Assembly: GCA_025350045.1 (NCBI GenBank)
Contig: JANXYM010000035.1
Span: forward strand, 1 to 39,338
Reading direction: 5' to 3'
Origin: Methanomicrobiales archaeon
GTDB taxonomy: Archaea > Halobacteriota > Methanomicrobia > Methanomicrobiales > Methanospirillaceae
Length of the DNA stretch: 39,338 nucleotides
Shown here: positions 30,857-39,247 of the stretch, one piece after another
Layout of the letters: every line of letters starts with the position of its first letter
Numbering within the stretch: position 1 is the first letter of the stretch
Notes under the pieces: model-generated
The model's input: the letters and a program-made list of their open reading frames with translations, nothing else
Databases searched by the model: none
Told to the model about the DNA's origin: nothing
Translations under genes and position numbers: made by a program

Positions 30857-30934
30857 ATCGGTTCCTGTTACCAGATGGGTATACCGTTTGGATAATGGAT
30901 GCCTTGACCCGGTAATTCCGGTAATCAGATATGA
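30852..30934 (-). repeat. Shared leader L2, copy 1 (P-loop kinase)
   Basis: GTTCCTGTTACCAGATGGGT, then ATACCGTTTGGATAATGG, then CCTTGACCCGGTAA match 39167-39247 with few changes. The start codon and even its first codon ATG-GA(C/T) coincide; similarity ends inside codon 3. The matching region includes GGTATACC. Confidence 0.75.
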
Positions 30935-32557: not shown

Positions 32558-33709
32558 CTATTGCCCGGTTCCCCGCTCGATAATCCGGAGATAATCGCTA
32601 AAAAGATATTTCTTGTACCTTTTTTTACCGGTAATCTCCCGGAGAATCTCGAGTTTTTCGAACTGGTTCACCAGATCATAGGCCGGCTGGTGACTGATAC
32701 CAAGTGCTGAACTGATATCCGCAACAGTGACTACCGGTTTTTTGAACAGGAGGTCGAGAAGCCGGACTGCATTGAGCCCCCCGGCATTATTTTTCATGAG
32801 GGTATCAACAAGTCGTTCCTTTAAGGAGATGATCTCCCGTGCATTGGCCAGGGCTTCATTGGATACTTCAATGATGCCACGAAGGAAAAATTTCAGCCAG
32901 GATTCCCAGTTCCCCTCGATTCGGATTTCCTGGAGAAGAGAGTAATATTCTTCCCGGTGAGTTTTTAAATATATACTTAGGTAGAGGAGAGGGCGGGCGA
33001 GAATGCCTTTCTGGCAGAGATAAAATGTGATGAATAACCGCCCCATCCGGCCATTCCCGTCAATGAACGGGTGAATTGTCTCGAACTGTGCGTGAACGAG
33101 TCCGATCTTGATCAAGGGGGGTATCCTGTCATCAGCGATAATAAACGATTCAAGGTCTGCTAATAATGCCGGCACTTTTTCCGGAGGTGGAGGAACGAAC
33201 GTTGCCGAATGCAGGTGCGAGCCAACCGGTCCGATCCAGTTCTGGACTGTGCGGATCTTTCCGGGCTCCTTTTTGCCGCCCCGTGTTCCTTTAAGGAGGA
33301 TGCGATGGATCTCCTGCAGGATCTCAACGGAAAAGATCTCGCGGCTTGTGTGTTTTAGTCCCTCATCCATTGCCCGGATATAGTTGATGACTTCTTTAAC
33401 TTCATTGATGTCATCTGCAGGAACCATATCTGCTTCAAACTCGAGTACTCCCTGGAGCGAGGCCTGCGTACCTTCAATCTGGGAACTGAGCAGTGCCTCT
33501 TTTTTCACGTACATTGCAACGAAAAGATCCGCATTGGGCAGAACGGTTGTCATGCCGTCGAGTCGGGCGAGGGCCCGGTCCGCTTCTGATAAAAGGTGAT
33601 GAAGTTCGTCATCAAAATGGAGCGGTGGATCCGGGGGGAGGGATTTGGGGATATATGCATGGTATCCTCCTTTCTGTCGTACCGTAACACCCATCCGGCT
33701 TTCCATCAT
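32558..33709 (-). CDS. Fic-family protein with inhibitory helix and wHTH end
   Basis: A 383-residue protein. The class II inhibitory motif SSQIEGTQASLQG is near 76-88. The Fic core HPFIDGNGRMGRLFITFYLC is near 217-236, with the complete HxFxxGNGRxGR needed for AMP or other NMP transfer. The C-terminus near 310-380 is a winged helix: VVTVADISSALGISHQPAYD and VNQFEKLEILREITGKKRYK. These proteins AMPylate target proteins; some act as toxins kept in check by the inhibitory helix, and the wHTH suggests DNA-linked autoregulation. It starts inside a repeat shared with 35937-36135 (MMESRMGVTVRQKGGYHAYI). A T8 run follows the stop. Confidence 0.93.
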   Translation of the reverse strand: MMESRMGVTVRQKGGYHAYIPKSLPPDPPLHFDDELHHLLSEADRALARLDGMTTVLPNADLFVAMYVKKEALLSSQIEGTQASLQGVLEFEADMVPADDINEVKEVINYIRAMDEGLKHTSREIFSVEILQEIHRILLKGTRGGKKEPGKIRTVQNWIGPVGSHLHSATFVPPPPEKVPALLADLESFIIADDRIPPLIKIGLVHAQFETIHPFIDGNGRMGRLFITFYLCQKGILARPLLYLSIYLKTHREEYYSLLQEIRIEGNWESWLKFFLRGIIEVSNEALANAREIISLKERLVDTLMKNNAGGLNAVRLLDLLFKKPVVTVADISSALGISHQPAYDLVNQFEKLEILREITGKKRYKKYLFSDYLRIIERGTGQ

Positions 33710-33859
33710 AATTCTTCGTCTCCAGAAAATGGTTCGGGATTTCGCTTCTAATTCTGGACAGCCAGAGTTACACGCGATTATGTTGTTTAAGTCTGTTTAT
33801 CCAGAATAAGGTTGTGGTGATGTGGGCCGGTACAGGGAATGGCAGTGTGGGGATTTGAC
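33652..33859 (-). repeat. Shared leader L1, copy 1 (Fic gene)
   Basis: Covers the first 20 codons of fic, the start and about 140 bases of upstream DNA. Matching blocks are ATATATGCATGG, ATCCTCCTTTCTGTC, TCCGGCTTTCCATCAT, CACGCGATTATG, TTTAAGTCTG and GGGGATTTGAC. The matching copy lies at 35938-36135. Copy 1 has about 14 extra bases before the final motif. Confidence 0.8.
33849..33859 (+). repeat. Junction motif, copy C
   Basis: GGGGATTTGAC at the outer end of the fic leader; continues ACAACAAATGACACCC, unlike the other copies. Confidence 0.65.
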
Positions 33860-35936: not shown

Positions 35937-35996
35937 AATATATGCATGGCATCCTCCTTTCTGTCATCCTGTGATACCTGTCCGGCTTTCCATCAT
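35937..35996 (-). pseudogene. Relic of a fic 5' end
   Basis: On the minus strand, the ATG at 35996 starts MMESRTGITG, then a stop, then QKGGCHAYI. The same positions in the intact fic gene read MMESRMGVTV-RQKGGYHAYI. After about 20 codons the similarity ends and the HNH gene begins 70 bases later. So a second fic-type gene once stood here and was replaced, or the fic leader was copied. No other part of a second fic gene remains. Confidence 0.6.
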
Positions 35997-36135
35997 CATT
36001 CTTCTTCTCCGGAATACGCTCCGGGATCCCGGTTATTATTCTGGCCAGCCAGAGTTCCACGCGATTATGATGTTTAAGTCTGGTTATCCCGGATAAGGTC
36101 GTAGTGACGGAGGGGTGGCAATGGGGGGATTTGAC
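35938..36135 (-). repeat. Shared leader L1, copy 2 (in front of the HNH gene)
   Basis: Block-for-block copy of 33652-33859: ATATATGCATGG, ATCCTCCTTTCTGTC, TCCGGCTTTCCATCAT, CACGCGATTATG, TTTAAGTCTG and, at the end, GGGGATTTGAC. Most positions agree, with more changes in the former coding part. Confidence 0.8.
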
Positions 36136-36160: not shown

Positions 36161-36266
36161 CCCGGCCAGCATGGGCCTGCCCTGAAAAAATACCCGTTTT
36201 TCGTCGGGAAACGCAGGTATCGACCAGCAACCATTTAACAGTATATATCTTTCTTTTATTATTACC

Positions 36267-36542
36267 ATGCTCCGCGATTTCTGTATACCCATGACGATGA
36301 AGATCATGGCGCTTGACCGCTCGCTGTACGATGCAGAGTACCTGGCTGCCATCATCGTGATCGAATACCTGCTGGTTTACACGATTATGGGATACCGGTT
36401 CCCGGCCAGCGAACCTGAGGAGGATTTCTGCTTCCCTTTCGCCCCTGCCGGTATTCTTCCCGGAACAAAAGAGATCACGGGTTGTGCACCTTTCTATGGT
36501 GAAGCCCGGAATCGTGCATCCGCTCTACTGCTGCCGGCCTGA
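36267..36542 (+). CDS. Possible small protein of unknown function
   Basis: A 91-residue frame from ATG 36267 (MLRDFCIPMTMKIMALDRSL), with a hydrophobic stretch AEYLAAIIVIEYLLVYTIMG near 23-42 and a Phe/Pro/Gly-rich rest. GTATATATC at about 36241 is a good TATA box 26 bases upstream, so a leaderless transcript is plausible. No known family was recognised. It lies 70-110 bases before the coupled three-gene operon and could be its first member. It could also be an accidental frame. Confidence 0.4.
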   Translation: MLRDFCIPMTMKIMALDRSLYDAEYLAAIIVIEYLLVYTIMGYRFPASEPEEDFCFPFAPAGILPGTKEITGCAPFYGEARNRASALLLPA

Positions 36543-36650: not shown

Positions 36651-37100
36651 ATGAGCGAACAAGCGCTCTCACACGCTAAAAACAGCTTCCTGAACAAAAA
36701 AGACCATTACGAGGTGATTACTATAGAGAATCGGAATTTTCGCGGAACTATCATCCCCATAAAAGACAAGGCATTGTCCGGAACCCGTCCGGTAGTACCC
36801 GGGCTGGTGAATACCCCTGCGGGACCGGGTCCGTATATGCGTGAAGGTGCACGGGATCCGGTGACGGCCGGTACCGGACCGGGTCTCCGTCCGGCACTCC
36901 GGGATCCGGTGACTGCTGGTCCCGGATCCTCTGCGGATCTGGATCCAGCCCCGGCCTCAGAAAAGGATGAACCCGGCCGCACTGCTGCGCTCTGCACCCG
37001 GGTCAGCGACGGGCAGGCACACCTCTCCGGCCGGCTCCGGAAGAAGCGGGTCACATTTGACCGGCGGATAGCAGCATTCCATACAGGGGCATGGTCCTGA
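36651..37100 (+). CDS. First gene of a coupled three-gene operon, function unknown
   Basis: A 149-residue product from ATG 36651 (MSEQALSHAKNSFLNKKDHY); a GTG at 36612 would add 13 residues. It has a short mixed alpha/beta head near 1-40 (EVITIENRNFRGTIIPIKDK), a Gly/Pro/Ala-rich middle with a direct repeat (DPVTAGTGPGLRPAL, DPVTAGPGSS), and a basic end RLRKKRVTFDRRIAAFHTG. GC content is high. Its stop overlaps the next start as TGATG, so translation is coupled. I recognise no family. Low-complexity middle and basic tail fit nucleic-acid or protein binding (inference). Confidence 0.55.
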   Translation: MSEQALSHAKNSFLNKKDHYEVITIENRNFRGTIIPIKDKALSGTRPVVPGLVNTPAGPGPYMREGARDPVTAGTGPGLRPALRDPVTAGPGSSADLDPAPASEKDEPGRTAALCTRVSDGQAHLSGRLRKKRVTFDRRIAAFHTGAWS

Positions 37101-37315
37101 TGCCCCGGCGCCAGACCGAAAATGAAAGGAATGTCCCGCTCTGGCTCATCCCCCAGGTGATCCTGCAGGGAATCAAAAAATCCGGCGAGGAACTGGAATG
37201 GATCCGCGTGAGGAGGACAAATCATCGTTACTATACGGTGAGCATCCGTACCCGGCCCACAAAGCGCGAGTTTTACCGGCGGGACCGGGCTGCTGCCACC
37301 GGGAGGCAGGCATGA
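37100..37315 (+). CDS. Second gene of the coupled operon, function unknown
   Basis: A 71-residue protein from the ATG at 37100 (MPRRQTENERNVPLWLIPQV). An ATG at 37091 would add three residues. The TGATG overlap with the gene before favours 37100. It is basic, with LEWIRVRRTNHRYYTVSIRT near 35-54 and FYRRDRAA near the end. The stop overlaps the next start as ATGA. Small, basic and strictly coupled to both neighbours, it may be a DNA-binding or adaptor subunit (inference). No family recognised. Confidence 0.6.
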   Translation: MPRRQTENERNVPLWLIPQVILQGIKKSGEELEWIRVRRTNHRYYTVSIRTRPTKREFYRRDRAAATGRQA

Positions 37316-37974
37316 GCCGGGGGCTGCCATCCAAAAAGGCTCTTGCTGCGGCCGTGCCGGTGGCCCAGGCCCGGGGGCAGGTGATATTTCTCCGGCAGTA
37401 TCCCGGCACCACCTGCGACTTTCTCATCAGTGAACCGTGCGGGCTGACGGTTGTCAGTGTAAAACGGTCGCTCCGGATTCGTGCTTCCCCCGGTGAGATC
37501 TTCCGGCAGTTTTACGAGACGCTGACCGGTATCCGTTCAGCAGAACACCCGCCCGGCATAGCCCGGGAGTTCTGGCTCTGGTCAAAGTATGGTACCATGC
37601 GGTTCTTCTGGATCGATGGGGCGGTACTGATCGAGATTGACCGGCAGGGGGTACCGCTGAACCCGCCGGTTTCGGCAACTATTGCGTCACAAAAGGACAA
37701 CAGGGCAAACCCGGCGGGGAAAAAAGCTGATGAACCACAGGCCGGAAAAAATTCTGCAGAGCCGGAACCCGGGAAAAATAAATTCCCGGAAAAAAATCCG
37801 GTTCCGGGTGCCGGTGCGGAACCTCCGGGCGTTTCCGGCCCTGCTCCGGCACCGGGCCCGTCCGGCCTGCGTGAACCGGCCGCTGTCCGGTACCTGCGGA
37901 AAAGAGCAAAGGAGCGGCGGGAGGCAAAGGTCCCGCAGGCCGGTCCCGGCCCGGGGGTACCGCCCCCGGGTTGA
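37312..37974 (+). CDS. Third gene of the coupled operon, possible nuclease-like protein
   Basis: A 220-residue protein from ATG 37312 (MSRGLPSKKALAAAVPVAQA). The first 120 residues form a compact domain: GQVIFLRQYPGTTCDFLISE, VVSVKRSLRIRASPGEIFRQ and FWLWSKYGTMRFFWIDGAVL. CDFLI, then VVSVKRS, then conserved-looking Trp/Arg elements are reminiscent of restriction-endonuclease-like folds, but no complete catalytic motif is clear, so this is only a suggestion. Residues 130-220 are a low-complexity, Pro/Gly/Ala/Lys/Glu-rich tail (for example EPEPGKNKFPEKNPVPGAGA). It is the last gene of the run and is followed by a gene-free gap of about 580 bases. Confidence 0.6.
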   Translation: MSRGLPSKKALAAAVPVAQARGQVIFLRQYPGTTCDFLISEPCGLTVVSVKRSLRIRASPGEIFRQFYETLTGIRSAEHPPGIAREFWLWSKYGTMRFFWIDGAVLIEIDRQGVPLNPPVSATIASQKDNRANPAGKKADEPQAGKNSAEPEPGKNKFPEKNPVPGAGAEPPGVSGPAPAPGPSGLREPAAVRYLRKRAKERREAKVPQAGPGPGVPPPG

Positions 37975-38551
37975 TTTTTTTTACGAGATTTCCGGTGAAA
38001 TTTCTCGTTCCTGCCAGGATTTCCCTGGTGGTGGAATGAAAGACCTGTTGACCCGGTGCAGGGGTTCTGGTGAGAGCAGAATCCGGTGCCCCGTCGGAGA
38101 TATCACTTCTCCGTCGTAAGGGATCCTCCATTTTGAGGTGAGTCAATCAAAGCCGATTTCAGGCTCCGTTTGGTACCTCCGGGGGGTTTTGCATACCGCA
38201 TTCGCAAAAAAGCATCACCCTGTTTTCCGGGGAAGGTGATTTTGGGCCCGGATGGGGGAATTTACGGGTAAACTGTTCCCGGAAATATACCTCTTTAGCT
38301 CTCTTTGGGGGGCGGAAAAACAGGGTGCGGCTGGTTTTGGTTGTGGCGGGGGGTTGGTTTGGATCCGGAGGGGTGCTGTCGGGCGGCAAACGGGTGTGCG
38401 GGTTTTTACGTCGGAGAAATTATGTGGATTGCTCGTTTAATGCCCGGTTCTCATCCGGCCATTGGTGAGATCAGCTATGTGCAGGACTGCACTTCAGCTC
38501 CCTGATGATATCCTTGAAGCGATAGTGATAGCGAATAAGACACGGAAGAAA
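37975..38551. other. Gap without supported gene
   Basis: The gap before the HepT gene has no convincing frame. The stretch is GC-rich (GGCGGGGGGTTGG near 38345) and holds a 29-codon frame at 38473-38562 on the plus strand (MCRTALQLPDDILEAIVIAN), which begins a little like some VapB antitoxins but is too short to call. Confidence 0.3.
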
Positions 38552-38884
38552 TTATCCGTTTTTTAAAATAAGAGAGATCTTCTTCTGAAGTTGGGGAAGA
38601 TCCTGTTGTGCGGTACTCCAGACTTCGTCCAGATCAATGCCGAAGTACTGGTGAACGAGAAGATGCCGCATGGCAATGATATCTTTCCAGGGAATTTCCT
38701 GGTGCTGCTCCTGGAATTCCGGTGAGATTCCATTTGCCGCTTCTCCAATTACCTGGATATGGTAGAGAACCCATACCTGCAGCAGGTCTGACTGGATGAA
38801 CTCTTCTTTTGTGGAAGGGAGTTTTTCCCTGATCCGCTGAACTGCTTCATCAATATCAAGGAGCCGTGCACGATCACTTCTCAT
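38552..38884 (-). CDS. HepT-like HEPN ribonuclease toxin (DUF86)
   Basis: A 110-residue HEPN protein. The catalytic RNase motif R-x4-H is present in IIAMRHLLVHQYFGIDLDEV near 69-88. Preceding helices (LLDIDEAVQRIREKLPSTKE and LQVWVLYHIQVIGEAANGIS) match HepT. It degrades RNA when active and is held silent by the MntA antitoxin. It overlaps MntA by four bases (ATGA), so the two are co-translated. Its length is normal for the family. Confidence 0.92.
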   Translation of the reverse strand: MRSDRARLLDIDEAVQRIREKLPSTKEEFIQSDLLQVWVLYHIQVIGEAANGISPEFQEQHQEIPWKDIIAMRHLLVHQYFGIDLDEVWSTAQQDLPQLQKKISLILKNG

Positions 38885-39171
38885 AAGGGTACTGCTTCCT
38901 GGATCACCGAATGACGGATCTGTTCCTTAAGTCCATTCACTGATGCAACATCCACATCGCAACCAAGAAGTTCAGAGAGTTCCCGCTGGAAGGCGGCATG
39001 GGTAAGAAGAGATGTGCCTAAAGGAAACCCGACAAGGAAATCGATATCGCTTCCCTCACGGGCTTCGTGACGGGCTACTGAGCCGAAGAGACGGATATCT
39101 TTTATGCCGAACCGGGCTGCAAGTACGAAGATCTCATCCCGTTTTGCCGCGATCAATTCGTAGTGATCCAT
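38881..39171 (-). CDS. MntA-like nucleotidyltransferase antitoxin
   Basis: A 96-residue minimal nucleotidyltransferase. The active-site signature is RLFGSVARHEAREGSDIDFL near 27-46 (GS-x9-DxD) and a third acidic residue appears in CDVDVASVNG. MntA antitoxins AMPylate HepT on a tyrosine to silence it. The first gene of the pair, its leader is near-identical to that of the P-loop kinase at 30856, and AGGAA before the start is a possible ribosome-binding site. A TATA-like ATTAATAATC lies near 39213. Confidence 0.92.
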   Translation of the reverse strand: MDHYELIAAKRDEIFVLAARFGIKDIRLFGSVARHEAREGSDIDFLVGFPLGTSLLTHAAFQRELSELLGCDVDVASVNGLKEQIRHSVIQEAVPL

Positions 39172-39247
39172 GTTCGTTTCCTGTTACCTGATAGGTATAC
39201 CGTTTGGATTATTAATGCATTGACCGGGTATTCCTGATATACGACAC
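39167..39247 (-). repeat. Shared leader L2, copy 2 (MntA)
   Basis: Includes TTTCCTGTTACCTGATAGGT, then ATACCGTTTGGATTAT, then GCATTGACCGGGTA; matches 30852-30934. The final 91 bases of the window after it show nothing I can name. Confidence 0.75.

What the first reader, a model, noticed from the sequence alone, without database searches (positions are those of the whole stretch)
36651..37974. Unrecognised three-gene operon coupled by TGATG and ATGA overlaps
Three consecutive plus-strand genes overlap by one to four bases in an otherwise minus-strand, toxin-rich island. They encode a protein with repeats and a basic tail, a 71-residue basic protein, and a protein with a compact nuclease-reminiscent head and a long low-complexity tail. 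None matches a family that I know. This is the best candidate in the window for an undescribed multi-gene system.
Basis: partly seen in the sequence, partly recalled or inferred. Interest (0 to 1): 0.75.

Follow-up and report, generated by a model that had tools for sequence, protein, structure and literature searches.

The report
Archaeal genes paired with scattered DNA repeats
The three small genes are real and belong to a previously unnamed, many-copy family in Methanoregula-group methane-producing archaea, in which a nuclease-shaped protein without the usual cutting residues travels with its own ~200-base DNA repeat, dozens of copies of which are scattered through most of the genomes checked.

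Summary
In detail: ORF1-ORF2-ORF3 lie at the stated coordinates with TGATG and ATGA overlaps, and ORF2/ORF3 are truly coding and conserved. A fourth gene (ORF0, 36267-36542), behind a TATA box, probably starts the operon. ORF3's head models as a PD-(D/E)XK fold (pLDDT 84; nearest Hjc-type resolvases), but the ExK motif is absent in all 85 relatives checked. ORF3 is a paralogous family almost confined to Methanoregulaceae (80 of 232 genomes of the order; up to 16 copies each) with no Pfam, NCBIfam, PHROG or PADLOC match. ORF1/ORF2 are optional. ORF3's usual companion is a ~200-bp intergenic element directly 3' of it (window 38138-38345): a hairpin plus co-varying direct repeats spaced 21 and 10 bp. 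Eight of nine family genomes hold 25-53 elements against 7-15 ORF3 genes (the ninth 5 against 3); most are solo. Two same-genome pairs (98% over 1.74 kb, 88% over 0.97 kb) with unrelated flanks show that gene and element spread as a unit. Related genes precede a primase-helicase-like gene elsewhere in the order. Best reading: a mobile gene-plus-repeat family that works like RAYT/REP but has no recognisable transposase. How it moves is not shown. It is not evidently a defence system.

The parts
36240..36249 (+). TATA-box-like promoter (AGTATATATC) about 20 bp before the ORF0 start
   Evidence: sequence; similar TATA and start context in L067 and L185/L186
36267..36542 (+). ORF0, 91 aa, one hydrophobic stretch (by eye); probable first gene of the operon
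   Evidence: 57% aa identity over 51 codons to L067, differences 10/12/31 at codon positions 1/2/3; weaker homologue in L063
36651..37100 (+). ORF1, 149 aa; low-complexity body, conserved C-terminal module LSGRLRKK..FDR.I..F...W
   Evidence: second trio copy in own genome at G000:C96 (L047)
37100..37315 (+). ORF2, 71 aa basic protein, PLYLIP..I......V+R......Y.VSIRT domain
   Evidence: model of low confidence (pLDDT 69)
37312..37974 (+). ORF3, 220 aa: PD-(D/E)XK-fold head (37312-37659) and variable basic low-complexity tail (37660-37971)
38138..38345 (+). 3' DNA element (member of the dispersed repeat family)
   Evidence: nhmmer E 1.2e-7; whole-genome search E 4.3e-9 at 38143-38345; no Rfam match
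38193..38225 (+). R1 (38193-38204) and R2 (38214-38225) sub-repeats, 21 bp apart; weakly alike in this copy (5/12)
38289..38308 (+). R3a/R3b tandem 10-bp sub-repeats ACCTCTTTAG/CTCTCTTTGG (7/10 alike)

Best explanation
The operon is one copy of a family of small mobile gene-plus-repeat elements of Methanoregulaceae. The core is ORF3, a PD-(D/E)XK-fold protein that lacks the canonical ExK motif, and the ~200-bp element directly 3' of it. ORF3, helped where present by ORF2 and the variable upstream proteins, is proposed to bind the phased direct repeats and hairpin of its own class of element as a site-specific DNA-binding protein. That element is the recognition end by which cassette copies, and shortened solo copies, are spread. 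Shown: family, predicted fold, absence of ExK, frequent 3' element, its co-varying sub-repeats, solo copies, dispersal of the unit within a genome, kinship of ORF2/ORF3 to genes preceding a primase-helicase-like gene. Inferred: the binding itself, that ORF3/ORF2 act in dispersal, and the mechanism (perhaps replicative, because of the primase-helicase kinship and the iteron-like sites).
For: ORF3 family in 80 of 232 genomes of the order, up to 16 paralogues per genome. AF2 model and Foldseek to Hjc, tRNA-splicing endonuclease, HincII and phage resolvases. Residue at the ExK glutamate position is mostly Arg, Lys or Ser, with no Glu among the residues listed, in 85 sequences. The 3' element follows ORF3 in 65 of 104 copies within 1.1 kb. 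25-53 elements per genome in eight of nine family genomes (5 in G016) against 3-15 ORF3 genes; at most one in six comparison genomes, four of other families and two same-family genomes without ORF3. Sub-repeat identity 0.58 at lag 21 and 0.50 at lag 10 against about 0.2-0.25 at most other lags, co-varying within an element (z 4.5 and 3.7). ORF3 and element distances correlate (Mantel rho 0.54, 0 of 500 permutations). Same-genome copies with unrelated flanks: L077/L084 97.7% over 1736 bp, L185/L186 87.6% over 968 bp. Solo elements share the cassette's 3' end with varied 5' breakpoints.
Against: No transposase, recombinase or conserved HUH motif found; no conserved terminal inverted repeat or target duplication; the empty-site search was uninformative. 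Binding is inferred only from repeat pattern and co-variation. A third of ORF3 copies have no detectable element. The window's own R1/R2 resemblance is weak.
Confidence: 0.58

Rival explanations
1. The cassettes are leftovers or satellites of the replication module of integrated plasmids or viruses: ORF3-like and ORF2-like proteins assist a primase-helicase, and the 3' element is an origin (iterons plus hairpin). The short cassettes would be replicated or spread in trans by such elements.
For: ORF2-like genes lie immediately upstream of a ~1000-aa protein in many Methanomicrobiales, and in L181/L182 the order is ORF3-like, ORF3-like, ORF2-like, big protein. Its N-terminal ~320 aa match a Bacteroides phage protein whose C-terminus is a DnaB/Twinkle-like helicase.
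Against: Genomes G018, G011 and G195 have many cassettes and elements but no copy of the large protein. No 3' element was looked for next to the primase-helicase genes.
Confidence: 0.2
2. A host-domesticated system: each ORF3 paralogue is a sequence-specific architectural or regulatory protein, and the solo elements are its chromosomal binding sites (operators or organising sites).
For: Solo elements keep conserved blocks and hairpin although about 20-25% diverged; helical phasing and co-variation fit protein-binding sites; absence of ExK fits a binding-only role.
Against: Solo copies carry the end of ORF3 and its stop region, so they derive from cassettes; copy number varies widely, tandem and broken copies are common, and near-identical dispersed copies exist.
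Confidence: 0.12
3. A defence or toxin-antitoxin operon with ORF3 as a nuclease toxin or effector.
For: PD-(D/E)XK fold; toxin-like neighbours in the window (Fic, HepT/MNT, HNH).
Against: No PADLOC match, active-site motif absent family-wide, partners not constant, and most elements have no gene.
Confidence: 0.08

Closest known systems
RAYT/REP (REPIN/BIME) systems of bacteria
   Same: A protein gene travels with a cognate hairpin repeat; many repeat copies in the genome lack the gene; gene and repeat co-evolve; lineage-restricted (PMC2817692).
   Different: RAYTs are IS200/IS605-related tyrosine transposases flanked by two inverted REPs; here the protein is an ExK-less PD-(D/E)XK fold and the ~200-bp element lies on the 3' side with phased direct repeats.
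Archaeal Hjc / phage Holliday-junction resolvases (PD-(D/E)XK)
   Same: Fold of ORF3's head.
   Different: No significant sequence match to solved structures, ExK motif absent, multi-copy, tied to a DNA repeat.
Insertion sequences with MITEs
   Same: Dispersed full copies and short derivatives in one genome.
   Different: No transposase and no conserved terminal inverted repeats or target duplications found; solo copies keep only one end.
Primase-helicase replication modules in Methanomicrobiales (A8 protein)
   Same: ORF2-like and ORF3-like genes lie directly upstream of it.
   Different: The window cassette and its kind lack the large protein.

Membership tests
RAYT/REP | HUH Y1 tyrosine transposase | tested here: not met
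   No significant Pfam/NCBIfam/PHROG match; ORF3 fold is PD-(D/E)XK; ORF2 H-x-H not conserved
RAYT/REP | gene flanked by two inverted REPs | tested here: not met
   element is on the 3' side in the same orientation; upstream copies in L045, L104, L106, L109 and L113 are direct repeats
RAYT/REP | many cognate solo repeats genome-wide | tested here: met
   25-53 elements per genome in eight of nine family genomes, most without ORF3
PD-(D/E)XK nuclease | alpha-beta-beta-beta-alpha-beta core fold | tested here: met
   (PDB matches with probability up to 0.99 but E about 1e-2; best viral match E 2e-4)
PD-(D/E)XK nuclease | D...(E/Q)xK catalytic motif | tested here: not met
   D36 kept in 64/85; ExK glutamate position R58 K9 S7, Q1, no E listed; lysine position M28 K27 R20
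Insertion sequence | encodes a transposase or recombinase | tested here: not met
   no significant family match to ORF1-3 in the libraries searched, nor to ORF0 and ORF-A in PADLOC and PHROGs
Insertion sequence | terminal inverted repeats / target duplication | tested here: inconclusive
   GATGC/GCATC at the ends of L077/L084 only; not in L185/L186; empty site not found
Defence system | match to known defence proteins or effector active site | tested here: not met
   PADLOC none, ExK absent
Structured RNA family | Rfam match or consensus RNA structure | tested here: not met
   (RNAalifold predicted no pairs on the MAFFT alignment; single copies do contain hairpins)
Iteron replication origin | replicates DNA in cis with its initiator | not testable with these tools
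   needs experiment

The most novel reading that the evidence does not exclude
A new kind of mobile element: a PD-(D/E)XK-fold protein without the ExK motif recognises an iteron-like, hairpin-bearing end and spreads it, with its gene or as one-ended solo copies, by a transposase-free, replication-coupled route derived from primase-helicase modules.
Probability: 0.25. Interest if true: 0.85.

Novelty: new variant of a known kind. Interest (0 to 1): 0.62.

Why it matters
Gene-plus-repeat systems such as RAYT/REP are known from bacteria with one kind of enzyme. A multi-copy archaeal counterpart built on a different, apparently non-cutting nuclease fold, whose paralogues vary their putative DNA sites in step with the protein, would give a natural set for studying how DNA recognition diversifies, and would account for a family of repeated intergenic DNA in Methanoregulaceae.

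Tried and rejected
Defence or toxin-antitoxin reading: no PADLOC match, active-site motif absent. Viral or plasmid origin of ORF3: no match in IMG/VR (subgroup query), phages or plasmids. RNA-gene reading of the 3' element: no Rfam match, no consensus RNA fold. Integron-like attC arrays: elements are spread over the genome on both strands, not pursued further. HUH motif in ORF2: HWH occurs in some members only. Empty-site search with the joined L077 flanks: no contiguous match. A profile of all ORF3 sequences was too divergent for the search for related loci, so a subgroup was used. ORF2 fold search: no convincing match. Literature searches found no description of this family (open-access papers only).

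Full report
Check of the observation. The three frames, their coordinates and their TGATG and ATGA overlaps are as described. The window is one whole contig of a 2.53-Mb assembly; the named relatives are Methanoregula and other Methanomicrobiales assemblies. ORF2 and ORF3 are coding: they have many homologues and differ from them mainly at third codon positions. ORF1 is conserved only in a C-terminal module. An upstream gene, ORF0 (36267-36542), follows a TATA box and has homologues in L067 and L063, so the operon probably has four genes.

What ORF3 is. No NCBIfam family and no significant Pfam family matches it or 57 relatives, and PADLOC and PHROGs give nothing significant. An AlphaFold2 model of the head (pLDDT 83.7) matches archaeal Hjc resolvases, tRNA-splicing endonucleases and HincII in the PDB at E about 1e-2 with probabilities up to 0.99, and a phage protein of unknown function at E 2e-4 followed by phage resolvases: a PD-(D/E)XK fold. 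In 85 aligned relatives the aspartate is kept in 64, but the ExK glutamate is not seen (Arg 58, Lys 9, Ser 7, Gln 1) and the lysine position is Met/Lys/Arg; R21, G22, E86, W88 and E108 are (nearly) invariant. Canonical cleavage is therefore unlikely; a DNA-binding role is inferred. The assignment of the ExK positions rests on fold topology and sequence pattern, not on inspected coordinates.

Distribution. A profile finds ORF3 in 80 of 232 genomes of the order, all but one in one family, with up to 16 copies in a genome; none was found in IMG/VR with a subgroup query, or in the phage or plasmid collections. Among 104 copies, ORF2 is present in about a quarter, a coiled-coil-like ORF-A in 14, the ORF1 module in 4. 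L185/L186 show a dispersed unit with ORF3 as its only recognised gene.

The 3' element. Downstream of ORF3 lies a conserved ~200-bp intergenic element, within 1.1 kb in 65 of 104 copies. It has a hairpin (GGGCCCGTAnnnGGGCTCC-like) and four short words: R1 and R2 21 bp apart and R3a and R3b 10 bp apart. Identity at these lags is 0.58 and 0.50 against roughly 0.2-0.25 at most other lags, and words agree better within an element than between elements (z 4.5 and 3.7 among 15 dissimilar elements). Spacing by one and two helical turns points to protein-binding DNA sites; no RNA family or consensus RNA fold was found. Gene and element distances correlate (Mantel rho 0.54; 0.33 below 60% protein identity).

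Solo copies and mobility. Nine family genomes hold 5 to 53 elements (eight of them 25-53; lower bounds, as only 150 candidates were scored each), the window's genome 29, against 11 ORF3 genes there; four genomes from other families of the order have none, and two same-family genomes without ORF3 have none and one. In G021 five solo copies of the L077 class share that cassette's 3' end, begin at different points near the end of ORF3, and hold no ORF2/ORF3 remnant detectable by profile. Two full copies in G021 are 97.7% identical over 1736 bp and two in G193 87.6% over 968 bp, each with unrelated flanks: the gene-plus-element unit disperses. Tandem and broken copies are common. Ends are sharp in L185/L186, but no shared terminal repeat or target duplication was found, and the empty-site search was uninformative.

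Wider kin. ORF2-like genes in other Methanomicrobiales families sit just upstream of a ~1000-aa protein, and in L181 and L182 two ORF3-like genes precede them. That protein's N-terminal ~320 residues match a Bacteroides phage protein (E 5e-47) annotated as a DNA polymerase, whose C-terminus is a DnaB/Twinkle-like helicase; its own middle carries a P-loop (GNSGKGK) with weak AAA matches. It is read here as a primase-helicase; this is inference. Several genomes with many cassettes lack it, so it is not needed in the same genome.

Interpretation. The family works like RAYT/REP: a gene with a cognate repeat, many solo repeats, co-evolution (PMC2817692). It is not a member: no HUH transposase and no inverted flanking pair. 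The mechanism of spread is open; kinship to replication genes and iteron-like sites suggests, but does not show, a replicative route. A defence role has no support here.

Noticed in passing
window 35938-36135 and 33651-33859: A second, unrelated dispersed repeat (80% identical copies; also in L086 and L057).
   Followed up: no
window 39174-39234 and 30858-30919: 62-bp repeat pair, 85% identical.
   Followed up: no
window 38552-39171: HepT/nucleotidyltransferase pair, minus strand; about 86% identical DNA in L098 (G029) at 1549-2231.
   Followed up: partly
L171-L177, L179-L182: ORF2-like gene directly upstream of a conserved ~1000-aa primase-helicase-like protein; L181 and L182 also have two ORF3-like genes in front.
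   Followed up: partly
L045, L104, L106, L109, L113: An extra direct copy of the element lies about 0.9 kb upstream of ORF3; in L045, L104 and L106 ORF3 lies between two copies, the other about 0.2 kb downstream.
   Followed up: partly
L079, L084, L100, L053/L054: The same downstream gene region recurs next to cassettes in several genomes, perhaps an insertion hot spot.
   Followed up: no
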